This document shows, piece by piece, positions 7,797 to 39,057 of a DNA stretch of 64,000 bases. The notes below the pieces were generated by a model. The model ran no database searches and was not told the DNA's origin. It saw nothing but the letters and a program-made list of their open reading frames with translations. Within the stretch, counting starts at the first letter, position 1; each line of letters opens with the position of its first letter. The position numbers were made by a program, and so were the translations under genes. This DNA is from Chaetoderma sp. LZ-2023a (lineage: Eukaryota; Mollusca; Caudofoveata; Chaetodermatida; Chaetodermatidae), in NCBI GenBank assembly GCA_034401795.1, contig CM067366.1, positions 85,234,147-85,298,146 on the forward strand, in the 5' to 3' direction.

Positions 7797-8356
7797 AAAT
7801 AGGCCTATAGATTAATGACTTGAACATATAATTTGATAAATTTATCCTCGGCCCTTGAACTTGTCAAACCAAAACGGCATCTGTACATAGTGATCTTGAG
7901 AAATTTTTAATTGTACACCATTTGTACACAGACGACAACTTTCTACAACTGACAAATAAACATAGAAAATTTTTACTTGGCCCGCACATTGACATGACGT
8001 AGGCCCTAGACGAAAATGTACACAACCAATCTGGACCATTACTACATCGGAAAATGCTAGCAAGCACCACAAATCATGACTCTATATCCATCGATGCCCA
8101 CCCATGTATCCATAATTACTATGACAACGAGTCGTTTGTAGCTGTGATTGTTGACATCAGCAAATATACGTTATCACATAAATAAGCTCATATATCATTG
8201 CATAGCATTAATTAAAGCATTATGGGCAATTTTATATTTAACTCGTTACAATTCACGTAATTTAGTGACACGAAATAGTGACGTAAGCAGCAAACTATGT
8301 ATTACTCCGTTAATTGTTATCTCGCCGTCATGACGTCGCAATGTTGACTGTAAAGT
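7797..8356. other. AT-rich spacer, no gene seen
   Basis: Short open frames occur on both strands (about 60-76 codons) without recognisable motifs or splice structure. Nothing else seen. Confidence 0.5.
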
Positions 8357-8757
8357 TATGGATGAATCGACTTTTGGCGATGCTCCGCCCATTTATAGCT
8401 AATCTTCGCCCACGCTTTGTCCGTGTTTGGATCGATTGAACGCTGAATTCCCATAAGCACAATATCCAAGTAACTATGCAGGTAATATGTTGAGGATTTT
8501 GAAACTAATTTGACTGAGTGTTGTTGCTGCCTATGACCTATGGCAGCAACAGAGGCCAGTCAAATTAGTTTCAAAATTTTCAACAGAATGTTTATTAAAT
8601 GGCAAATCCATCAAAGACATACAATTCGTACACATGACGGACTATTCCAGCTCCATGACGGACTATTTCTGTCAAGAATGATTGTAATGTCATGCCTACA
8701 CGTAACGAAATTGTTTATGACGTCATATACTTGATCAACATATCGGATTCATTCATT
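8357..8757 (+). mobile_element. CRE-MITE copy, full length
   Basis: It has the GC-box end (ATGCTCCGCCCA), the central palindrome with CTATGACCTATGG at the tip (8485-8585), and a CRE end with one TGACGTCA. Confidence 0.85.
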
Positions 8758-9094
8758 ATTTTACTGATAGAATGTTGGAAAAATAAATATGTTAATAAGT
8801 TTGAATGAAAGACTGAAGTTATAAATCATGAAATAAGAATGGTTGTAAATGTGATGTAAAATAGTCAGAAACTTAACATAATCGACTTGAACATTAGAAA
8901 CCACGACATATTCATATAATACATTAATATTACATGTATTTCAGAGAAGCTCAAACTCAGTGCCAGTTCGTATAAAATATATCACATTTGCATAGAAAGA
9001 TTGTTGAAGTTCAGTTGCAGAGTTTTCTAAATTAGATCTCACAGAACTGGTGTGATAAAGCTGATGGTGGCTACTTTGTTCTCATACTGAATAA

Positions 9095-10690
9095 TATTGC
9101 TTCCCACCATCATCCACTCCAACAATGTTACTAACCCACCATCATCCACTCCCACAATGTCACCAACCCACCACCATCTACTCCCACTATGTCGCCAACC
9201 CACCCACCATCCACTTACACAATGTTACCAACCCACCATCATCCACTCGCAATGGCACCAACTCACCACCATCCACTCCCACAATGTCACCAACCCACCA
9301 TCATACACTCCACAATGTCATCAACCCACCATCATCCACTCCCACAATGTCACCACCCAACCACCATCGACTCCACAATGTCATCAACCCGCCATCATCC
9401 ACTCACACGATGTCATCAACCCACCATAATCTATTCTCACAATGGCAACAACACACCATCATCCACTCTCACAATGTCACCACCCACTATCATATACTCT
9501 GACAATGTAACCAACGCACCAACATCCACTCCACAATGTCATCAGCCCACCATCATCCACTCCGTCAATGTTACCAACCCACCACCATTCACTCCTACAA
9601 TGTCACCAACCCACCGTCATCCACGCCGTCAATGTTACCAACCCACCACCATCCACTCCTACAATGTCACCAACCCACCACCATCTACTCCTACAATGCC
9701 ACTAACCCACCACCATCTACTCCTACTATGTCGCCAACCCACCATCATCCACTCCCACAATATCATCAACCGACCACCATCCACTCACACAATGTCACCG
9801 AACCACCACCATCCACTCAAACAATGTCACCAAACCACCATCATCCACTCACACAATATCACCAAACCACCATCATCCACTCACACAATATCACCAAACC
9901 ACCATCATCCACTCCCACAATGTCACCACCCAACCACCATCCACTCCACAATGTCATCAACCCGCCATCATCCACTCACACGATGTCATCAACCCACCAT
10001 CATCTATTCTCACAATGGCAACAACACACCATCATCCACTCTCACAATGTCACCACCCACTATCATATACTCTGACAATGTAACCAACGCACCAACATCC
10101 ACTCCACAATGTCATCAGCCCACCATCATCCACTCCGTCAATGTTACCAACCCACCACCATTCACTCCTACAATGTCACCAACCCACCGTCATCCACGCC
10201 GTCAATGTTACCAACCCACCACCATCCACTCCTACAATGTCACCAACCCACCACCATCTACTCCTGCAATGCCACTAACCCACCACCATCTACTCCTACT
10301 ATGTCGCCAACCCACCATCATCCACTCCCACAATATCATCAACCGACCACCATCCACTCACACAATGTCACCGAACCACCACCATCCACTCAAACAATGT
10401 CACCAAACCACCATCATCCACTCACACAATATCACCAAACCACCATCATCCACTCACACAATATCACCAAACCACCATCATCCACTCGCACAATGTCACC
10501 AAACCATCATCATCCACTCACACAATATCACCAACCCACCATCATCCACTCACACAATGTCACCAAACCACCATCATCCACTCACACAATGTCACCAAAC
10601 CACCATCATCCCCTCACACAATGTCAGCAAATCACCATCATCCACTCATACACTATCACTAAGCCATCACCATCCACGGGCACCATTCCA
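9095..10690 (+). repeat. 33-bp minisatellite with 573-bp higher-order duplication
   Basis: About 48 units of a 33-bp repeat, consensus like CACAATGTCACCAACCCACC plus ATCATCCACTC. Because 33 is a multiple of three and the unit lacks stops, all three plus frames stay open and encode His/Pro/Thr/Ser-rich repeats of 11 residues. These are not convincing genes. A block of about 573 bp is duplicated in tandem: for example the CATCAACCCGCCATC variant occurs at 9382 and 9955, and the CACTATCATATACTCTGAC variant recurs with the same spacing. Confidence 0.9.
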
Positions 10691-12038: not shown

Positions 12039-12421
12039 AATGGAGGGATCCGATATGTCGCTCAAGTATCTGACGTCATAATCAAGTATGTCACTAGTTA
12101 GCTGGCGTCACAATCATAATGACGTATAGATCTATACGCCATGAAAATCGAATAGAGCATCACTGGTGTACGAATTGTATGCATTTGATAATGTTACAGT
12201 TTAATAAACATTCTGTTGAATATTTTGAAACGAATTTGACTGGGAGCTTTTGCTGCCATATGCAGCAACAGCCCTCAGTCAAAATAGTTTCAGAATATTA
12301 ATTAGTTAAATTTAGATGCCGCGAATTTTGATTCTGAGCAAATTTTCCAAATCCCTTTCAACTTGAGCTAGAAAATGGGCGGGGCCTAGCTAGAAATGGG
12401 CGTGGCCTGGCTAGAAATGGA
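12039..12421 (-). mobile_element. CRE-MITE copy, full length
   Basis: Read on the minus strand, the GC-box end (GGGCGGGGCC, with an extra GGGCGTGGCC) is at 12375-12420, the palindrome at 12215-12300 and the CRE end at 12039-12130. Confidence 0.85.
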
Positions 12422-22539: not shown

Positions 22540-22844
22540 GTAAGCAGATTGAATTTCCCAATTATAGTCAAATTCAGAATAAAGCATTTAATTTTCAAAT
22601 GATCCCCCTGTGGATCCAGAAATTTGGTCATCAAAAGCTTGCCAGCTCTGAGGGACCCATGTAAGATTTTCAAAAAACTTGTAATGCGGTCTATGTGTCC
22701 TAAGTTCGTCCATGAGTGTCTCTATGGCGCCATCTGAAACGCAATAACTGATGCTTTGGTCAGTAGAAGTACAGGTGGTGAGTGGCCTTGTAGGTTTACA
22801 TCTGGATGTCTGAGAACCGATGGGAAGGGAATTACAGCAATGCA

Positions 22845-23617
22845 ATACAAGACAAAACAAGACAAGACCAGCCAAGACAGGGAACGGCAAGGCAAGGCAA
22901 GGCAATGCAAAACAAGACAAGACAAGTAAGGCCAAGACAGTACAAGAGAAGGACAGGACAAGACACAACAAGACAGGACAAAACACGACGAGACAAGACA
23001 AGACAAACACGACAAGAGAAGACAAGTCAGTACAAGACAAGACAAGACAAGACAAGACAAGACAAGACAAGGCAAGGCAAGGCAAGGCAAGGCAAGGCAA
23101 GGCAAGGCAAGGCAAGTCAACCCATGTCTTGTCTTATCTTATCTTATCTTGTCTTGTCTTGTCTTGTCAAGACAAGACAACACAAGTCATGCAATACCAG
23201 GCGAGACAAGACAAGACAAGACAAGACGACAAAAGACAGCACAGCACAACACAACACAACACAACACAACACAACACAACACAACACAACACAACACAAC
23301 ACAACACAACACAACACAACACAACACAACACAACACAACACAACACAACACAACACAACACAACACAACACAAGTCAAACGAGACGAGACAAGATAAGT
23401 CAAACACGACAGAACAAGACAAGGCAAGGCAAGGCAAGGCAAGGCAAGGCAAGGCAAGGCAAGGCAAGGCAAGGCAAGGCAAGGCAAGGCAAGGCAAGGC
23501 AAGGCACGAAAAGACAAGACAAGACATGACAAGACAACGCAATACAAGACAAGACAGGACAAGACAAGACAAGACAAGACAAGACAAGACAAGACAAGAC
23601 AAGACAAGACAAGACCC
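22845..23617 (+). repeat. pentanucleotide array (GACAA/GGCAA/CACAA) with strand switch
   Basis: About 150 tandem 5-mers are arranged in homogeneous blocks: GACAA (to 23065 and after 23510), GGCAA (23066-23115 and 23420-23505) and a long CACAA block (23240-23372). At 23125-23168 the array flips to TCTTG/TCTTA, the complement, then flips back. Open frames on both strands up to 275 codons (TRQDK, HNTTQ, CLVLS repeats) follow from a stop-free 5-mer and are not genes. Confidence 0.95.
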
Positions 23618-23920: not shown

Positions 23921-24315
23921 AATGGAGGAATCCAGTTTTAGCTATGCTCCGCCCATCTCTAGCTAAACTCCACCCACACTTCGTCCGTGTTTGGTTCACT
24001 CGATCCCTAAACTCTTTGACTATTATTTTCCAGAAAGGTATACAAGTAAGCTGTTGAATATTTTGAAATTAATTTGACTGGATGCTGTTGCTGCTGATGG
24101 CAGCAAAAGCGACTAGTCTAATTGGTTTCAAAGGATTCAACAGCATGTCTATTAAATAGTAAAGACATACAACTCGTACAGCAAAGCTTAGTCCGTCATC
24201 AGTTAAGCAGTCATGACGAACTTATCTACGTCCTTCATGACGTCATTACTTATGAAGTCATCCTACACGTCACGTAGTTGATTATGACGTCATATGATTG
24301 ATGGAAAGGTTCATT
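23921..24315 (+). mobile_element. CRE-MITE copy, full length
   Basis: Complete GC-box end, hairpin (24050-24145, GTTGCTGCTGATGGCAGCAA tip) and a CRE end with TGACGTCAT repeated; ends GATGGAAAGGTTCATTG. Confidence 0.9.
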
Positions 24316-24696
24316 GTGAGTGTTCTATAAGGTGGACATTTAGGACAGGTTATGCTGTACATGACAAATATGCGCAGGTGCTCGCGTGCCGTCAGTACAC
24401 ACTCCACTGATGCGAATATAGTGTTCCTGAAAATAGTATAGTATTTTGCTTATACAATAACGATATTGTTGCTGGGGTCAATGTTACATTTTACAGTTAT
24501 TTTACAGTTACTGATGATATTGAAATGCAGAATGTGTAGCTCGTGCGTACCGCGATCTGGCAACTTACTACCTCCTGACATTATTTTGAATTGCGCATCC
24601 TTTGTTTGTTCTGTAAGCGTGCCAAAACATGTCACATTGATAGATACAGCACAGCTCAGAAATAGCCTGAAATATTTCCAAAACAAGCTAAAACAT

Positions 24697-24786
24697 ACTG
24701 TTGAATATTTTGAAGCTAATTGGATTGAAAGCATTGATGCCTAAACAATGTCTTCCAATCTAATTGTGTTCTAAATATTCTACAGA
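24697..24786. mobile_element. CRE-MITE palindrome variant fragment
   Basis: Variant hairpin CTGTTGAATATTTTGAAGC / GTTCTAAATATTCTACAG around ATTGAAAGCATTGATGCC. A similar CTTCCAATC.AATTA variant is at about 37320. Confidence 0.6.
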
Positions 24787-24944
24787 ACACTTATTACTTA
24801 CTAACATGTTTCTGTTTTTGTTTTGGAGTCAAATCAATGTATTTCTGAGCTGTAGTCTATAGTCCACGAGCCTATAGCCCATATGCACACACATATACTA
24901 CATGCATTTATCAGCAGCAACCGCGCCATTTTAACTCTCTTGTC

Positions 24945-25085
24945 TCAACTTGGCCCTTTAATGGTCAAACTGACAAATAAAACCTTTGCTGTGGTCTTCA
25001 GCCATGACTATCTGAACGGCCTAGAGAAGAGTATTTTTTTAATATTTACCACTTGAATGACTGGCTCGGTAACCCTTGGGCCTCT
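24945..25085. mobile_element. TTAACCCTTT hairpin MITE ('B'), half copy
   Basis: CCCTTTAATGGTCAAACTG, TGTGGTCTTCAG, CCTAGAGAAGAGTAT and ACTTGAATGACTGGCTCGG follow the order of copy 12593-12815 in reverse complement; it stops at the hairpin tip. Confidence 0.65.
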
Positions 25086-25313
25086 TGTTATAGCCCTGTA
25101 TAGGTGAGATATAAATCTTAAAGCGCCACAATAATGGTAGAATGCAATGGAATGCCGACGCTTCAAATTACCTTCCCTGAATGACTAGTTTGCAACCATG
25201 TAGCAAGTCAAATTATTTTACAAATATTTAACAGATGGATGCCAGAGGCACAGCTAAGTCTGGATACTACGAATTTGTCAGTAAAATGGTTAATGATGAA
25301 ATGGCCAAAAAAC

Positions 25314-25373
25314 TTTGATATGAGAGTGGTCTCAACCATGTCTCAGCATCAAACACCCTGGAACTGTGAGCTT

Positions 25374-25437
<64 letters not shown>

Positions 25438-25497
25438 AAGCTCACAGTTCCAGGGTGTTTGATGCTGAGACATGGTTGAGACCACTCTCATATCAAA
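25314..25497. repeat. perfect 184-bp palindrome with (AT)n centre
   Basis: The left arm runs from TTTGATATGAGAGTGG to GAGCTTGGTATAT. The right arm is its exact reverse complement, and the middle is about 60 bp of (AT)n. No mismatch was found in the roughly 62-bp unique arms. A diverged partial copy of one arm lies at about 25564-25603. Open frames over it are mirror images of each other. Confidence 0.95.
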
Positions 25498-25661
25498 AAA
25501 TTATATATATATATATACTATAGCCCCCTTTCATTATGTAAAGGAATAGTATCTATAGAGATCTCAAGCTCACAGATCCAGGGTGTTTTAGATTGAGACA
25601 TAGCTAATATATAGGCGGCGTATAGGGGATTTAGCCTGTGAATCTGTTACATGTCACGGTC

Positions 25662-26053
25662 ATTCACCTTTCCACAGTATTCATCTATCAATCTGTCGTC
25701 ATAAGACCTCATAATCAGCTAAGCGGCGTGTAGGATGACGTCATAATCATTACGTCATAAATGATTCTATATGGCCCGTCTTTAACTCTTAATAGTCCGA
25801 CACGTTGACGTTGTACGAATTGTCTGTCTCTACTATTTAATACACGTGCTGTTGAATATATATTGAACATAGGCAGCAACAGCATCCAGTCAAATTAGTT
25901 TCAAAATATTCAACAGCTTACCTGTATAGTTTTCTGGAAATCGATAGTCAGGAAGTTCATAGATCGATCGATCCTAACACGAGCGAGGTGTGGGTGGAGC
26001 TTAGAGAGAGAGAGAGATGGGCGGGGCATAGCTAAAAGCTAGAAAGGTCCATT
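25662..26053 (-). mobile_element. CRE-MITE copy, hairpin partly deleted
   Basis: On the minus strand the GC-box end lies at 26010-26053 (GGGCGGGGCATAGC) with one hairpin arm at 25865-25920. CRE motifs are at 25735-25770. An extra (GA)n is inserted at 26004-26017. Confidence 0.85.
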
Positions 26054-26720: not shown

Positions 26721-26732
26721 CCAGTGACACCT

Positions 26733-26869
26733 AGTAGTATAGCCGGTAGTAGAAAAATACCACCACCCTCCACAGGCAACCATTCCGTGATCCGCGGCTC
26801 CCACCGCCCTCTCGATTCCTGAGGCATAGGAATTGGAGACATGGGCCACACAAATACACACAAGATACC
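26733..26869 (+). repeat. left terminal inverted repeat of polymerase element
   Basis: The sequence from AGTAGTATAGCCGGTAGTAG to CACAAGATACC matches the reverse complement of 33134-33269 at roughly nine bases in ten. Similarity ends abruptly at the outer AGTAGT. The flanks read CACCT before it and CACCA after the right copy, hinting at a short target duplication. Polinton-type elements also commonly start with AG. Confidence 0.85.
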
Positions 26870-26911
26870 CAGGCCCAGGGTTTCAGATCCTTGATATAGA
26901 CTTTATCAAAC

Positions 26912-27241
26912 ATGCATTATAATACATGCAAATGGCTCATGCGCGGTAAGCCTGTTTGATGCTTAAGGAGCTGTGCTGGAGAATATTGTGAGACACACAA
27001 TGCTCAGTTTCGGAAGGGTGCTGTTGAGCCGAAGCCGTGCAGAGGTTGCGGGGTAGGTATTTATACAGACTGTGGACTATGTAAAGCATGCGGGGGTCGT
27101 AAACATTCTAACAGAATGAACTACAATCAGGCCTGTGCCAGGAGAAAGTTCGGTTTAGTTATGGACGAACTTAAACGCGTCATGCCATGCATTTGGGACA
27201 ACAACTCTTATATAGGCGCCTCGAAGATGGGCAGAAATTAA
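26912..27241 (+). pseudogene. small Cys-rich protein, one in-frame TGA
   Basis: An ATG at 26912 opens a 109-codon frame ending in TAA at 27239, with a single TGA at 26957-26959. The peptide has clustered cysteines: CLRSC, EYCETH, then PCRGCG, DCGLCKACGG and NQACARRKF. The CxxC spacing suggests a zinc-binding fold. It sits just inside the left terminal repeat and 43 bp before the SAP-like ORF, in the position of a first gene of the element. Function unknown; a DNA-binding or regulatory role would be a guess. If translation begins after the TGA, only about 90 codons remain. Confidence 0.6.
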
Positions 27242-27284
27242 GCATTTAGGGACAGTTTAAGATCTAATATATATACCTTGCATC

Positions 27285-27437
27285 ATGGTTACTATAACAC
27301 AGCTTCGAGTTATGGCAAAGCAATTCGGTCTTAGAGGCTATTCGAAGGCCTGCAAAGCCGACCTGCTCCAGATGATTGCACACGCCAATGCCGAGGAGTG
27401 CCGAAAGTACTCCCCGCCCTTGCCGAGGAGTGGCTAA
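27285..27437 (+). CDS. small SAP-domain-like protein of the element
   Basis: An ATG at 27285 gives an intact 50-codon frame to TAA. Residues about 3-32 read ITQLRVMAKQFGLRGYSK followed by KADLLQMI. This fits the SAP motif (two short helices; pattern 'LR..AK..GLRGYSK..KADLL..I'), a DNA-binding fold present in many eukaryotic chromatin proteins and some large DNA viruses and mobile elements. The ORF ends shortly after the domain (EECRKYSPPLPRSG), so it may be a stand-alone mini-protein, or the N-terminus of a longer protein cut by a frameshift before the polymerase frame that opens at 27500. It lacks any other domain. Confidence 0.6.
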   Translation: MVTITQLRVMAKQFGLRGYSKACKADLLQMIAHANAEECRKYSPPLPRSG

Positions 27438-27499
27438 AGCGACTCTCCCGAGCATAACAGACAGGAAGGTTTCCGGCGCTCACCTCTGGGGATCCATAG

Positions 27500-30400
27500 A
27501 ACCCTCACAAGAAAGCACAGCTGCACCGTGAGCTTCGTCAGTTGTATGAGGAAACGACTGTCAGCGTACAGGCCAAAGCTGTAGCAACTCGGATGGCAAG
27601 CCATCCACAAGAACGCCTACCTCTTCTACAGAGAATCAGAAGACGATTGCCGAGATCTGAAACCTTAGCCCGGAGTATGAGGCGAGAAGGTCAGCAGATT
27701 CTCAACGAGCGTCTCGGTGAGAGGGAGACAAAGGCGAGAGGATGGCGAACAGTATGCTGGACATTCTTCAGAGAACTAGAAGGAAACATTACAGGTCGGA
27801 TCATGGAGAGGATCCAGACCGTACAGAACGCCTTCTACCTTCGGTATACCCACACCTATCGAATCCGCCACATGGAGGATGGTAGGGTGATGGCCTTCCA
27901 CAAGAATGCTCGAGGAAGTCCCTGGATGAATACACTGGAAGCGGCCCAGACTTGGGAGAAGGGTAGAGAGCAAGCCCACCTCGACCCAGACATTATCGAT
28001 CGACCCAACACCGCGTGGATCTTCGTCAGATCAATCAACGTTGAGGTAAAGGTTTTCATTGACCACCAGCCTCTGCTAGGAACAGGTCCCCTCCCAGCCT
28101 GGCTCCGATGGAAGAAGGGAATGACAGCACTCGATACCTACAAGGACAACATGTGTCTCTGGAGATGTATAGCAGTCCAGCATGGTGCGAGAGCTGATAG
28201 AAGTACAGCTCCTGCACGAGAGCTTATTAAACAGTTCAACGGATTGAACAGGCCTGTGGCTGACGTCGCAAAGAAGTCCCTAGACCAGCTGGACAAGGTA
28301 GAGTTATATGCGAAGACAAGGATTCGTGTTTATGAGCCCACTGAAGAGGGCATCTGGCATCTGACCAAGAAATCGGCTGACTATCCGAGCATCATAGTCA
28401 TTGGAGTATACGACCACCACGCTTTCTTCATTAAGGACATCTCCAAGCTGACCCAGACTTTCAACTGCAGGCACTGTCAACAGCAGTTCACCCACGCATG
28501 TAGTCTCCATCGTCATGCTGACCGCTGTACTGGGGGGAAAACGACTATTGATTGCCCGAGGAAGAAGGTAGCGGTACCGCAGTCAGCATACAAGAAGGCT
28601 TTCTATCCAAACAAACTGGCTAGTTCAGCAGCTACTCGTTGGATTGAATATGAGTCGAGAAACAAAGGAATTCATATACACCACGCAAAGTATGGTCATG
28701 GTGGTGAGCGTTGGATCGAGGGGGCTCCCGTAGATGGCTATGATCTGACAACCGATACAATATACCAGTTCCATGGCTGTCACTGGCATGGTTGCTCACA
28801 ACACCAGCATGGTGAGGATGCCGAACAAAGATACCATAAGATGGTCGTGAGTGACGAGAAATTGAGAGCATCTGGACGCACACTTGTGGTACAGTGGGGG
28901 TGCTGTGTAAAATGCTTTACAAGCATCCATGCACCAGTGTGGACGGTACCATACCCACACTTTCTTGTCTATGACTTTGAAGCCCTTCTAGATGGGATCA
29001 AGACCCACCCTACAGAGGCTCACGATCGAGAGTGCCCACATACCAATCTTGATTTCAGTCGGCTGTTCCTTAGATGGTAGCACGAGCTCGCCAACTCACC
29101 TCTGCAATGCTAACTCCAAAATGCTGATCTCAGTGTTCATGCAGGAGAGCCATCTACGAGCCTCCACGACCTGTGCACGGGTTCGGTCACAGTATCTATC
29201 CACAGACTTGGACAAGTTACCTAAACGACAGCAGCGATTTATCAATGAGTTGTGTAACCAGGTGCCTGTGCTCGGGCTCAACTCTGGCCGGTACGACCTG
29301 AACCTCATCAAGAAGTACTTCGTGGAGGAGCTCACAAGTTCTGTGCTAGTGCAGGGATCAGCAGGTATGGTGAAAGTCGCCAAAAGGCTAGCCAGACAAT
29401 GTTTCTCATTACACCTGAACTAAGGTTTCTAGATGTGCTGAACTACCTCGGTCCTGCGGTCTCCTACGGGGCATAGATAAAAGATTATGGGTGCACACAG
29501 CAGAAGAGCTGATTGCCTTATCAATGGTTCGACATGCCTGGGGAGCTTGACTATCCTGGACTACCTGATTATCCGGCGTGGTGATCTAAGCTCAAAGGTT
29601 GTTACTTTTTTTAGTTGTCAGAGTAGAAGCAATGTAAGTAGACCTTCAGAGATCAAGGGATGAAGACATTTGCCGACTGGCTGTGATACTACAATAACCT
29701 GGATATCAGTCCATTCATCGGAGCTCTTGAGCAGATGCGACAATTCTACGCAGAACAAGGTATTGACATTTTGAAAGATGTGGGCTCTCCTCCGGGAGTG
29801 TCACTACAGTATCAACTTCATGGAACCACTCAACATATGCCAGATGTTAGCCTTTATTCCCCAGGCAAGGAAGCCTATGCGATTCTGAAGGGTGCCGTTG
29901 TCGGTGGACCCAACATCATGTTCACAAGATACCATGAGTCGGGTGTTACTCGAATTCGCCAAGGTAAGCGAGTATGTCAACGGCTCCTTGGTTATGATGC
30001 GAATGCGCTGTATTTGTCAACCATGGCCCAAGCAATGCCTTGTGATAAAGAAACTGTATGACGGTGGAGTGGTCATGTAAGCAGTGATATTGAATGCTTT
30101 AAGAAGGATCTGCTAGCAGATCGTTGGTTTGGGTTTGCCGAGGTCGACATTGAGGTACCTAAGGCATTATGGCCACAGTTCGAGGAGATGTCTCCCATCT
30201 TCTATAATCGTGAGATCCGAGAAGAGGCTATACCTTCGGAGATGATTGCATACCTTGATAAAACAGGTCGACAAAAGTCTACAACTAGCACTCTCTGGGA
30301 AGAAGAGGGTATTCTATGCACCAACTCTCAAGTGGTACCTTGCCCACGGGTTAGAGAATACTGCTATCTATCGCACTATAGACTACACCTCGCAGAAACC

Positions 30401-31332
30401 TTTTGAATGGTTTGTGGACTCTGTTACTGAGGCAAGTCGTACCGGGGATTGTGACAAAAGTAATGCCTTGTTGGCTGATCTCTTCAAATTCCTTGGCTGG
30501 CAACAGTGCATATGGGAAGCTGATCGCGGCATTAGAACGTCATACCAACACGAGCTTCACTAGGGATGAACGAGCGGTAGACAGAGCCTTGCATAGTGCA
30601 TGGTTCGATGATCTAGAGGAGATCGGTGATTCCTACGAGTTGCAGAGCTGTAAGGCTAAAATCACAATTCGTCGGCCCTTCCATGTGGGTATAGCAGTAT
30701 ATGAGCTCGCGAAGCTGCGAATGCTGGAGTTCTACTGCGACTTCCTCGACTGCTACGTAGCTCGTGATAGCTTCGAGTACCTGCAGATGGACACCGATTC
30801 TGCCTATATCGCCATAGCAGGCTCAAATCTCGATGAGGTGATATGCCCAGAGATGTGAATGGAGTATGAGGCCTGCAAACGGGACTGATTGGCATGGGAA
30901 AAATGGTCTGGCCACACTCCGGGATTGTTCAAGCTCGAGTTCGAAGGCACTCGTGGTATTGCTCTCTGCTCCAAGTGCTACTACGTGGAGAATACAGACC
31001 ACTGGAAAAGTAGGAACTCGCAAGTGAAATGCTCGACCAAGGGAATGTCTAAACAGCATTACGTCTCCTGGTAGAGGTTCGAGAGCGCCCTCCATGGTGT
31101 AGTGGACAGAGCCACGAATCGAGTCATCCGTCTGCACAACCAGGGTATGGTGACGTATGAGCAGGAAACACTTGGTCTCTTCACCTACTACGATAAGAGA
31201 TATGTGCTACCAGATGGTCTCCACACCGAGCCCATCGAGTATCACAGCCCAAATGCAGCACCGCCTACCAGGGTTCAACCAGCGCAAGCACAAGTCAGCG
31301 CTTATGATCTGGAGGGTGTCTACTTGACGTAA
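27500..31332 (+). pseudogene. type-B DNA polymerase (protein-primed class), frameshifted
   Basis: The frame opens at 27500; the first ATG in frame is 27590. Domains in order: a unique N-terminal region; a Cys/His finger (CRHC...HRHADRC, 28465-28530); an endonuclease-like segment with FHGCHWHGC (about 28770-28797), as in related viral-type polymerases; exonuclease I YDFEA (28970-28985); exonuclease II NSGRYDLNLI (about 29280-29310); a FLDVLNYLGP segment (about 29428); polymerase motif A GYDANALYLS (about 29990-30021); motif B GNSAYGKL (about 30497-30520); and motif C MDTDSAY (30787-30807). Lesions: frameshift near 29050, stops at 29078, between 29450 and 29690, and between 30060 and 30190, a shift near 30400-30500, then in-frame stops at 30856, 30886 and 31072. 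The catalytic residues survive although the frame does not. Family length is roughly 1,000-1,300 residues, matching this span. Confidence 0.9.
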
Positions 31333-31473
31333 GCACTCCAGGTGGCGGTAGCTGTAATGGTTTCATCTTGAAAGCGGTGTGGCCACCAACTGGTTTCTGA
31401 CCACTAAAGATGATCTGCTGGAGAATTTTACTAAACATTGCCGTTTAAACCTGTATATAGCTAGACGTTAAAC

Positions 31474-32560
31474 ATGCAGCAGTACGTGTGGCATCCTGAT
31501 GGAGTGGTTGAACCCACGACCTCGCACCACACCGATCTTCGGAAGGACTGTCTAACAGTCATTCGAGCTAGTATCCATGATGCGAAACCTCTCTCTGCTG
31601 CGGGGAAGTACATCGACTTCGCGATCTCGGGACAGATCCACGAGATTAGGAGCATGCCACTCAAGTTTAAGCTCGAGAGCACTGAGGAGAAGGATGTAGA
31701 GCTCGCGCAGATTGTGAGCAGGTGGGAGATTGTGCAGAACAACACCACCCTAGACACCACCTATATAAACGATGAGTATCGAGTCCTGGCTCCTCTAGCT
31801 CGTGAACTGGCCTACTATGCGAAGGAGAATGGGTACTATGCCATCCGATGTAATGAAGGTTTCACAGAATTCAACTTACAGCCAGACGTAGAAATGCCTG
31901 TTGTGGTGCCACTCTTCTCCCTCCTCGAGAACACGCACGTGAACCAGGCCTTGATGCAGGACAAGCTGTTCCATCGGGTGTACACTGAACATCTTCCAGA
32001 TGTAACGATGACCTCTCCACGACTTCACGTCTGGTATGATGAGAATGACCAGGAACTAAAAACGGGAGTGTTCTAGACAGCAAATCCTACATGTAGAGCG
32101 AAAGTACCAGCAGGTCCAGGCCATAGATAACCAGCGTCTAGAGTTGATATTGCAACGAGGTGTCTCAGATTGTGTAGCTGTGACAGTCCTGGTTGATAAT
32201 GGAGGGATGGTCCAGCAGGTGGGTGAGCTAAATGACTTCAAACCTATAGTGGTTGGGGCCAATGTTCTCGGTGAGCTATGCAATCTGGCTGATTGCTGTC
32301 TCTTTCAACAGGAGACGAAGTTGTATGGCTTACTGCGTCTAACCAGGGTCCCCGAGGCTCTGGAGATGGCACTTGAGGGTCAGTACCACCTCGGAGGTAA
32401 GAATATCTCACCTAATAATGGCAACCAGCTCAGCTTTTATGTTGGGAACCTGCTCGGAGAGCGTGTAGGCACTCGCACAGTAGGCGTGAAAGTACTGTAC
32501 TTTGGCTATGCCAAGGTTTGTGTATCACACACCACTGGTATTCAGCTTGAGCGCGTGTAG
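31474..32560 (+). pseudogene. unknown element gene, split by one frameshift
   Basis: An ATG at 31474 opens 200 codons ending TAG at 32074. In the next frame, coding-like sequence resumes at once (from about 32070, HVERKYQQVQAIDNQRLEL) and continues to TAG at 32560. The two parts therefore look like one protein of about 360 residues with a single frameshift near 32070. The first part has acidic/aromatic stretches (YVWHPDGVVEP, GKYIDFAISGQIHEI, HVWYDENDQEL). The second has VSDCVAVTVLVDNGGMV and LSFYVGNLLGERVGTR. No family recognised. Its position after the polymerase and its size would suit a structural or accessory protein, but that is inference only. Confidence 0.55.
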
Positions 32561-32616
32561 TGCATGATTCTGTCTCTAAAAATAGGTGATCACTAAAGAC
32601 AGGTCAGCACCTACAT

Positions 32617-32755
32617 CATCAATCATTATCAACAATCATCATCACCATCATCATCAATCATCACCATCATCAATCATCATCATATCATCATCATCAATCA
32701 TTATCAATCAACATCATCAATCATCATCATATCGTTATCATCATCATCATCATCA
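32617..32755 (+). repeat. (ATC)n microsatellite
   Basis: ATC/ATT trinucleotides with interruptions, inside the element downstream of its last gene. Confidence 0.9.
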
Positions 32756-33003
32756 AGTTGTCCAGCGTGCTCTACTATCTGGCAATACTGTTTCACATTT
32801 ACTAATAATACATAGCGAGATTTAAACGGGCGATTTTAAGTGTATCTCGGCTATGCATGCATTAATAGAAAATATTACCTAGATTTAGCTGATAACCTGT
32901 TATAGCTATCTTGTGTGCTTAGGCGCATCGCATATTTTCTCGGGACACAATCCCGAGTTGGAATGTGTGGAATGTATGTGCATAATTACTGTACGGTGTG
33001 GTT

Positions 33004-33117
33004 GTTATATCGCTATGGATACTTATCTCTAAATGGGCGTTCGGATCATGTAATGTGTATGTTCAGAAGTTGGCATATCACTGTGGATGCATGTCTCTAA
33101 ATAGGTGTTCGGACCTT
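33004..33117 (+). repeat. imperfect duplication, ~43 bp x 2
   Basis: CGCTATGGATACTTATCTCT..GGGCGTTCGGA recurs 69 bp later as CACTGTGGATGCATGTCTCT..AGGTGTTCGGA. It lies just inside the right terminal repeat, as subterminal repeats of replicons often do. Confidence 0.75.
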
Positions 33118-33133
33118 CCCATTTAGACACATG

Positions 33134-33269
33134 AGGTATGGTATGTATTTGTGTGGCCCATGTCTCGAATTTCTATGCCTCAGAAATTGAGAGGGCGGTG
33201 AGAGCTGCGGATCGCGGAACGGTTGCCTGTGGAAGGTGGTGGTATTTTTCTACTACCGGCTATACTACT
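33134..33269 (-). repeat. right terminal inverted repeat of polymerase element
   Basis: Reverse complement of 26733-26869: GTATTTGTGTGGCCCATGTC at the inside, GGTGGTATTTTTCTACTACC and CCGGCTATACTACT at the outer end. About 12 substitutions over 136 bp. Confidence 0.85.
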
Positions 33270-33479
33270 CACCACTACAGCCACGGCCGCTGACGACGAC
33301 GACTACCTGGATAATGACATGACAGTGATAGCATTAGAGAAAATAACGACAACAATACCAGGGAAAGTGATGACGATGATGGCTGTGAAAATTGTGATAG
33401 CCGAAGCAACACCATTAGAAGTGACAATAGCAGCCACGATAGGACCACAATTATCACCATCAACAACATATGTGTAGTA

Positions 33480-38545: not shown

Positions 38546-39057
38546 CGGATCCATTTCTAGCTATGCCCCGCTCATTTCTAGCTATGCCCCGCTCATTTCT
38601 AGCTATGCCCCGCTCATTTCTAGCTATGCCCCGCTCATTTCTAGCTATGCCCCGCTCATTTCTAGCTATGCCCCGCTCATTTCTAGCTATGCCCCGCTCA
38701 TTTCTAGCTATGCCCCGCTCATTTCTAACTAAGTTCTTCCACAATGTGCGCGTGTTGAAATCGCGTTATATGCATTCAATTCTGAATTCCCAGAATCCCA
38801 ATTTCAACATAACTATGCTATACAGGTAAGCTGTTCAATATCTCGAAACTAATTTGACTGAGTGTGTTTGCAAAAGATTCAGCAGAGTGTTTATTAAATA
38901 GTAGCGACATACAGTTCGTACACTTGATGAACTGTTCAATGTTCATGACGGACCTGATACTTTATTCCTTAGACTTTATGATTGTAGCATCAACTTACAT
39001 ATGACGTAATTGATCATGACAGCATATACTTGAGTGACATATCGGATCCATCCATTG
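38546..39057 (+). mobile_element. CRE-MITE copy with internal 21-bp amplification
   Basis: Starts GGATCCATTTCTAGCTATGC and ends ATCGGATCCATCCATTG. The hairpin is largely deleted (38830-38880). Its GC-box segment is amplified (see the separate repeat). Confidence 0.85.
38552..38730 (+). repeat. 21-bp x 8 tandem repeat of the MITE GC-box segment
   Basis: Eight identical 21-bp units, CATTTCTAGCTATGCCCCGC plus T, and a partial ninth. Single-copy in other family members. The repeating frames (MPRSFLA on plus, ARNERGI on minus) are artefacts. Confidence 0.95.

What the first reader, a model, noticed from the sequence alone, without database searches (positions are those of the whole stretch)
26733..33269. 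A 6.5-kb type-B DNA polymerase element with 137-bp terminal inverted repeats
Seen: inverted repeats at 26733-26869 and 33134-33269, about 90 percent identical, with abrupt outer ends (AGTAGT / ACTACT). Between them, all on one strand, are a Cys-rich ORF, a SAP-like ORF, a viral-type PolB and an unknown gene. Known: protein-primed PolB plus TIRs defines Polintons/Mavericks, adintoviruses, bidnaviruses and linear plasmids; Polintons are 15-20 kb with integrase, ATPase, protease and capsid genes. Inference: this is a compact replicon lineage or endogenised virus segment that differs from Polintons in size and gene content.
Basis: partly seen in the sequence, partly recalled or inferred. Interest (0 to 1): 0.88.

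Follow-up and report, generated by a model that had tools for sequence, protein, structure and literature searches.

The report
Shortened Maverick transposon, amplified many times
The 6.5-kb element is a shortened and rearranged copy of a large virus-like transposon (a Maverick/Polinton) that is common in the same genome, and this short version has itself spread to many places, probably by borrowing enzymes from the full-length elements.

Summary
In detail: a 6,537-bp element (26733-33269) with ~137-bp terminal inverted repeats (124 of 135 aligned positions identical), a Rho_N/SAP-type N-terminus, a broken protein-primed PolB and an unknown gene 2. The reading as a lineage apart from Polintons is not. 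Copies with the same termini (5' TIRs: short-long 92.4%, short-short 91.7%) close at 13.5-16 kb and carry, on the strand opposite PolB, an rve integrase, an ATPase-like ORF and further genes, a Maverick-like layout. AGTAGT//ACTACT is a published Maverick end motif. The short form's PolB-gene2 junction is spanned by 34 of 40 scored genome matches (window included) and was not seen in long copies read. Of 18 elements with both flanks, 11 have exact 5-bp and 2 exact 6-bp target duplications; mispaired controls 0 of 306 for each. Integrase and eight other long-form queries find nothing in the window. Best reading: a rearranged, non-autonomous Maverick derivative, amplified with integrase supplied in trans (inferred). 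Side findings: PolB holds terminal-protein-like, OTU-like and Vsr-like folds; no relative of gene 2 was found in the protein database searched; duplications are mainly 5 bp, not 6.

The parts
26733..26869 (+). 5' terminal inverted repeat, outer end AGTAGT
26960..27238 (+). Cys-rich small ORF (93 aa stop-to-stop), putative zinc-binding
   Evidence: zf-CXXC E 0.0053, below cut-off
27261..27434 (+). SAP/Rho_N-type N-terminal piece of PolB
   Evidence: PF07498, 25.9 bits, cut-off 24.9; homologues P0001, P0002, P0033 carry Rho_N or SAP at their N-terminus
27542..29080 (+). PolB N-terminal half, 512-aa unbroken piece
   Evidence: 468 homologues at E<=1e-3
27734..28072 (+). Terminal-protein-like domain D1 (Y-family little-finger fold), model residues 65-177
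28097..28447 (+). OTU-like cysteine protease domain, model residues 186-302; Cys205 invariant, His293 at least 90% conserved
28466..28528 (+). C2H2-like zinc finger inside PolB
   Evidence: homologues (E 0.00028 to 0.061, below cut-off); conserved columns
28616..28927 (+). Vsr-like endonuclease domain, model residues 359-462
29735..30061 (+). PolB piece with palm motif A-like YDANALYLSTM (motif name recalled)
   Evidence: 57% identical to P0095, inside its DNA_pol_B_2 match
30403..30858 (+). PolB piece with NSAYG and MDTDSAY (motif B and C names recalled)
31075..31329 (+). C-terminal PolB piece
31354..31395 (.). Approximate interval of the short-form junction between PolB 3' end and gene 2; edges differ between copies
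   Evidence: PolB-side match ends at 31354 in 6 rows; gene-2-side match starts at 31346-31468
31465..32076 (+). Gene 2, first piece (203 aa stop-to-stop)
32060..32560 (+). Gene 2, second piece, in another frame in this copy
32614..32756 (+). CAT-rich tandem repeat inside the ~560-bp stretch 32580-33141 that some short copies lack
33134..33269 (-). 3' terminal inverted repeat, outer end ACTACT
26728..26732 (+). Left side of a probable 5-bp target-site duplication, CACCT (right side CACCA, 4 of 5 bases)
33270..33274 (+). Right side of the probable target-site duplication, CACCA

Best explanation
The element is a fossil copy of a non-autonomous Maverick/Polinton derivative. SHOWN: full-length Mavericks with the same ends exist in this genome, with PolB on one strand and integrase, gene 2 and an ATPase-like ORF on the other. 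The short form lacks integrase and ATPase-like ORF, joins the 3' end of PolB to gene 2 in the opposite relative orientation, and shares that junction across many sites. Short and long copies have the same ends and the same kind of short target duplication. INFERRED: one rearrangement (deletion plus inversion, or recombination between two Mavericks) made the short form; full-length elements supplied integrase, and possibly polymerase and particles, in trans; PolB would prime replication from a terminal-protein domain later cut free by the OTU domain. The window copy is dead.
For: Same 5' TIRs in short and long copies (short-short 91.7% over 21 pairs, short-long 92.4% over 21 pairs, long-long 95.7% over 3 pairs; 7 short and 3 long copies). 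Right TIR found in 5 of 7 far stretches, at 9.4, 13.5, 14.1, 15.6 and 16.0 kb. rve integrase PF00665 above cut-off in 2 of 3 integrase pieces scanned (E 1.1e-9, 4.7e-8; the third, a 165-aa fragment, had no rve match); integrase query 132 scored of 11,894 candidates, 84-90% identical apart from the query itself. Order PolB+, INT-, acidic-, gene2-, ATPase-like- in 6 of 8 long-type copies; L044 shows no ATPase-like match and L046 neither INT nor ATPase. In the window, tblastn with INT, both ATPase pieces and six other long-form ORFs finds nothing at E 1e-3, while PolB pieces and gene 2 match; INT also unmatched in the 6 short-type copies and in the 6 short-type 3' pieces L019-L023, L028 (L022 and L023 are one insertion). 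Junction query: 34 of 40 scored matches (of 3,047 candidates; window included) span it, 6 stop at window position 31354; 5 of 8 further junction loci show the 3' TIR 1.6-1.9 kb on, one of them only over 41 bp. Exact 5-bp TSD in 11 of 18 (8 short or deleted, 3 of the 4 elements of 13.5-16 kb), exact 6-bp in 2 of 18, mispaired controls 0 of 306 each. End motif (AGT)2//(ACT)2 published for vertebrate Mavericks (PMC8097293, passages and section 7).
Against: TSDs are mostly 5 bp, while intact vertebrate Mavericks have 6 bp (PMC8097293). Of 18 elements, 3 showed no TSD (one of the long copies among them) and 2 (the window copy among them) have one mismatch in 5. No long copy read carries the short junction, so the parent was not caught. 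Gene 2 of the short form is only about 73-76% identical in DNA to that of the main long family, and 80-88%, over 118-203 bp, to gene 2 in other long-type contexts, so a plain deletion and inversion of the main family does not explain everything. The selection test does not separate the readings well: PolB palm shows no third-position excess among shared changes in short copies (0.33), but none in long copies either (0.21); gene 2 of short copies does show one (0.48, Fisher p 0.0012; non-CpG 0.45, p 0.06), which could mean that it stayed functional. Capsid genes of the long form were not identified by sequence.
Confidence: 0.84

Rival explanations
1. The short form is a selected mini-replicon or satellite: PolB plus gene 2 (perhaps a structural protein) form a minimal set that replicates itself and parasitises full Mavericks only for integration and packaging.
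For: PolB and gene 2 both kept in many short copies; gene 2 shared changes in short copies favour third positions; open frames of gene 2 of 200 aa or more in several copies.
Against: PolB shared changes in short copies show no third-position excess, though the palm test is flat in long copies too and so has little power; PolB and gene 2 look broken in the copies whose frames were listed; the gene 2 signal weakens to p 0.06 without CpG sites.
Confidence: 0.12
2. The element is an independent compact virus lineage or endogenised segment (bidnavirus-like, linear-plasmid-like).
For: Size close to a bidnavirus segment (recalled); a terminal-protein domain fused to PolB also occurs in bidnavirids and cytoplasmic linear plasmids (PMC11071308, passages); viral fold matches 2 and 4 are records labelled parvoviridae, one of them a DNA polymerase.
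Against: Same TIRs on 13.5-16-kb integrase-bearing elements in the same genome; Maverick end motif and TSDs.
Confidence: 0.02
3. The short copies are several independent deletions of Mavericks that happen to look alike.
For: Other deletion forms exist: a 1.7-kb copy on C12, a 9.4-kb copy, L043 and L026.
Against: The same junction at 34 of 40 scored places, with distinct flanks at those examined.
Confidence: 0.02

Closest known systems
Polinton/Maverick elements (vertebrate Mavericks, PMC8097293)
   Same: (AGT)2//(ACT)2 ends; TIR length within the published 46-1,447 bp; protein-primed PolB; rve integrase and two opposed gene sets in the full-length relatives; their 13.5-16 kb within the published 12.7-24.6 kb
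   Different: Window element is 6.5 kb, without integrase or ATPase-like ORF; TSD mostly 5 bp instead of 6; in the long relatives the ATPase-like ORF lies on the integrase strand rather than with PolB; gene 2 unknown
Adintoviruses / MELD viruses (PMC11071296)
   Same: PolB with OTU-like domain; first and third viral structure matches of the PolB N-half are Drosophila-associated adintovirus 2 and a MELD virus PolB (TM-scores only about 0.2)
   Different: Hexon and penton not shown in the long form; integrase chromodomain not tested
Polinton pPolB architecture TP-vOTU-EXO-PALM (PMC11071308)
   Same: D1 little-finger-like, D2 OTU-like, then PolB
   Different: C2H2-like finger and Vsr-like domain lie between OTU and exonuclease here; that paper mentions varied homing endonucleases inserted in polinton PolB, so this may be one of them
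Tlr element of Tetrahymena
   Same: Once proposed to be a non-autonomous Polinton derivative (stated in PMC4028283, one passage)
   Different: That paper argues that Tlr diverged from Polintons long ago and has its own major capsid protein; the present short form shares ends with full-length elements in the same genome

Membership tests
[quoted passage not shown]
   Window pieces match P0095, which holds DNA_pol_B_2 E 2.6e-9; terminal-protein-like and OTU-like folds. The window pieces themselves reach no DNA_pol_B_2 match.
Polinton/Maverick (family of the element and its long relatives) | TIRs with Maverick end motif | tested here: met
   AGTAGT//ACTACT; motif published
Polinton/Maverick (family of the element and its long relatives) | Short target-site duplication | tested here: met
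   5 bp exact in 11 of 18, 6 bp exact in 2 of 18, controls 0 of 306 each; the window copy itself has 4 of 5
Intact vertebrate Maverick | 6-bp TSD as reported for intact vertebrate elements | tested here: not met
   Only 2 of 18 are 6 bp; I treat this as a lineage trait, so the element is not filed as a vertebrate-type Maverick
Autonomous Maverick (window copy) | rve integrase inside the element | tested here: not met
   No match of the long-form integrase in the window, no rve in the ORF pieces scanned; the window copy is filed as a derivative only
Autonomous Maverick (long copies) | rve integrase between the same TIRs | tested here: met
   PF00665 above cut-off in 2 of 3 pieces; integrase placed in 7 of 8 long-type copies
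Autonomous Maverick (long copies) | Packaging ATPase | tested here: inconclusive
   P-loop ORF with AAA_16 E 7.8e-4 and Pox_A32 E 0.0096, all below cut-offs; no solved structure matched by sequence
Autonomous Maverick (long copies) | Major and minor jelly-roll capsid proteins, protease | tested here: inconclusive
   No sequence match for the candidate ORFs scanned or gene 2; structures not predicted (no jobs left)
Adintovirus | PolB with N-terminal OTU-like domain | tested here: met
   OTU-like fold
Adintovirus | Hexon recognisable by BLASTp; integrase with C-terminal chromodomain | not tested
   No reference hexon was compared; chromodomain not looked for
Bidnavirus | Linear single-stranded DNA genome with PolB | not testable with these tools
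   Integrated copies only; integrase-bearing relatives with the same ends argue against

The most novel reading that the evidence does not exclude
A satellite of a Maverick: a 6-kb PolB-plus-gene-2 replicon, born by rearrangement, that copies itself with its own polymerase, keeps gene 2 under selection, and takes integrase and particles from full-length Mavericks, much as satellite viruses use helpers; its PolB would carry terminal protein, protease and a Vsr-like nicking domain in one chain.
Probability: 0.12. Interest if true: 0.7.

Novelty: new variant of a known kind. Interest (0 to 1): 0.36.

Why it matters
Deletion derivatives are routine for cut-and-paste transposons (general knowledge), but a search for five phrases such as 'non-autonomous Maverick' or 'nonautonomous Polinton' found none of them in the held open-access library (its 3 papers hold only 'Polinton-derived'). 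An amplified short form with its own TSDs suggests that Maverick ends can be mobilised without integrase in cis. That would allow a test of which Maverick parts act in trans, and it warns that a short TIR-flanked PolB element need not be a new virus lineage.

Tried and rejected
Rejected: independent compact lineage (long relatives with the same ends); unrelated MITE (short copies carry PolB and gene 2); a chance inverted repeat. Led nowhere: no confirmed hit in viral contigs with the PolB piece or its alignment (27 pattern matches, none confirmed); no homologue of gene 2 with one sequence (28 candidates, none at E 1e-3) or with an alignment (the 7,996 candidates sharing most words scored, none at E 1); single-sequence fold of gene 2 useless (mean pLDDT 30); the genome-wide count of TIR ends by pattern did not complete. 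No PDB match of the PolB model reached Foldseek E 0.001. Fisher tests treat changes as independent and used 6 to 11 copies after dropping those with too little aligned sequence (gene 2: L030 of 11 short and L046 of 7 long dropped; PolB N-half: L042 of 7 short and L035 of 7 long dropped; palm: none dropped); suggestive only. The 20 copies were picked for similarity to the window TIR, so type frequencies are not genome frequencies; the genome search counts are lower bounds. After rechecking, the odds were moved slightly (0.86 to 0.84, rival 0.10 to 0.12), because the palm selection test is flat in long copies too.
Full report
Observation. The inverted repeats, their ends and the four coding parts are there. 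The element spans 26733-33269. The four 2-kb bins it touches have G+C 0.45-0.49; of the other 28 bins two are as high (0.491, 0.499). Inverted pairs of 100-140 nt are frequent in this window owing to dispersed repeats, so the pair needed outside support. The TIR query gave 40 scored places out of 1,317 candidates in the host genome (2.44 Gb, 2,753 contigs), with the same outer end in 8 of 8 loci read first, one of them the window copy.

Short and long copies. Of 20 copies read from 1.5 to 8.5 kb inward (chosen from the list by closeness to the window TIR), 6 are short-type (PolB and gene 2 on one strand), 8 long-type (gene 2 on the opposite strand), 2 are read from the other end of a related element, 1 is another deletion and 3 are undetermined. 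Seven of the 8 long-type copies were read on to 18.5 kb: 5 of 7 showed the right TIR, at 9.4, 13.5, 14.1, 15.6 and 16.0 kb; one of the other two was partly masked. The 9.4-kb copy (L046/L054) lacks integrase and ATPase matches. The long form has, after PolB and on the opposite strand, an rve integrase (PF00665 in 2 of 3 pieces, E 1.1e-9 and 4.7e-8), an acidic ORF, gene 2, a P-loop ATPase-like ORF (AAA_16 7.8e-4, Pox_A32 0.0096, below cut-offs) and ORFs without matches, then + strand ORFs near the 3' end. The integrase query scored 132 places of 11,894 candidates and gene 2 scored 150 of 7,138, so this is a very large family here. In the window itself, integrase, both ATPase pieces and six other long-form queries find nothing at E 1e-3.

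Junction and integration. A 441-bp query over the short-form junction gave 40 scored matches of 3,047 candidates; 34, the window included, run through the junction and 6 stop at window position 31354. One pair of unplaced contigs is the same insertion (C707 and C587) and two further pairs may be. Of 8 further junction loci, 5 show the 3' TIR in the 1.1-kb stretch read. Of 12 gene 2 copies chosen for upstream reading, 1 has PolB sequence upstream, 8 have instead the upstream sequence of the long form and 3 match neither. Of 21 elements collected, 18 had both flanks: 11 have an exact 5-bp TSD, 2 an exact 6-bp TSD, 2 (the window, CACCT/CACCA, and C4) differ at one of 5 bases, and 3 show none (L043, L054 and the long copy L051, whose right end is unclean); 306 mispaired controls gave none at either length. 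Short and long copies therefore integrate alike. PMC8097293 (passages, section 7) reports (AGT)2//(ACT)2 as the commonest end motif and 6-bp TSDs for intact vertebrate Mavericks, so the ends agree and the TSD length differs.

Selection. Singletons spread evenly over codon positions in every set (third-position fraction 0.31-0.37), as expected of decay after insertion. Shared changes among short copies are even in PolB (palm 0.33, 11 copies; N-half 0.35, 6 copies) but favour third positions in gene 2 (0.48, 10 copies, p 0.0012; without CpG 0.45, p 0.06). In long copies the fractions are 0.21 (palm, 7 copies, p 0.30), 0.54 (N-half, 6 copies, p 0.017; without CpG 0.46, p 0.15) and 0.40 (gene 2, 6 copies, p 0.40). 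So the palm test has no power here; the N-half contrast mildly favours a passive PolB in the short form, and gene 2 remains open.

Mechanism, with status. Shown: same ends, same TSD kind, shared junction, no integrase in the short form, integrase-bearing elements with the same ends in the genome. Inferred: origin by rearrangement, integration by integrase in trans, protein-primed replication and OTU cleavage. The short form's gene 2 is nearer to gene 2 of other long-type copies (80-88% over 118-203 bp; 82-84% in L032 and L047) than to that of the main long family (73-76%), so its gene 2 may have come from another Maverick subfamily by recombination (inference).

Verdict. A real element, not a new virus lineage: an amplified short Maverick derivative, a modest variant of a known kind. 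Papers: PMC8097293 passages and section 7; PMC11071308 passages; PMC11071296 outline with abstract and section 16; PMC12721341, PMC4046053, PMC2836005 and PMC4028283 passages only. The statement that non-autonomous Mavericks are little described rests on the phrase search and the listing (51 papers, 12 listed) in the held open-access library only.

Noticed in passing
window 28616-28927 and homologues: Vsr-like endonuclease domain between OTU and exonuclease in this PolB family; no paper pairing these terms was listed (12 of 50 papers listed, 10 of 10) and PMC11071308 does not contain the word Vsr.
   Followed up: partly
G000 host genome: Mavericks are very abundant: 11,894 first-look candidates for the integrase, 132 scored at 84% identity or more.
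   Followed up: partly
L055:6532-7578, L050:1919-3007, L035:1124-2497: Long open frames of the long form, including gene 2, without a Pfam match; possible divergent capsid proteins.
   Followed up: partly
window 9103-10677: About 49 copies of a 32-bp tandem repeat with strong strand skew (GC skew -0.44 in 8001-10000) and a 505-aa open frame through it.
   Followed up: no
window 22843-23615: Array of about 155 CAAGA units.
   Followed up: no
window 38552-38731 and 12366-12420: 21-bp tandem repeats; the first is 99% uniform over 8.6 copies, suggesting recent expansion.
   Followed up: no
window 23968-25999 and about 8400, 12200, 18050, 22250: Family of dispersed ~120-130-bp repeats in both orientations, perhaps SINE or MITE.
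   Followed up: no
window 32580-33141: A ~560-bp stretch in the window copy and some others but absent from other short copies (L019, L020, L028, L041), marking two short subfamilies.
   Followed up: partly
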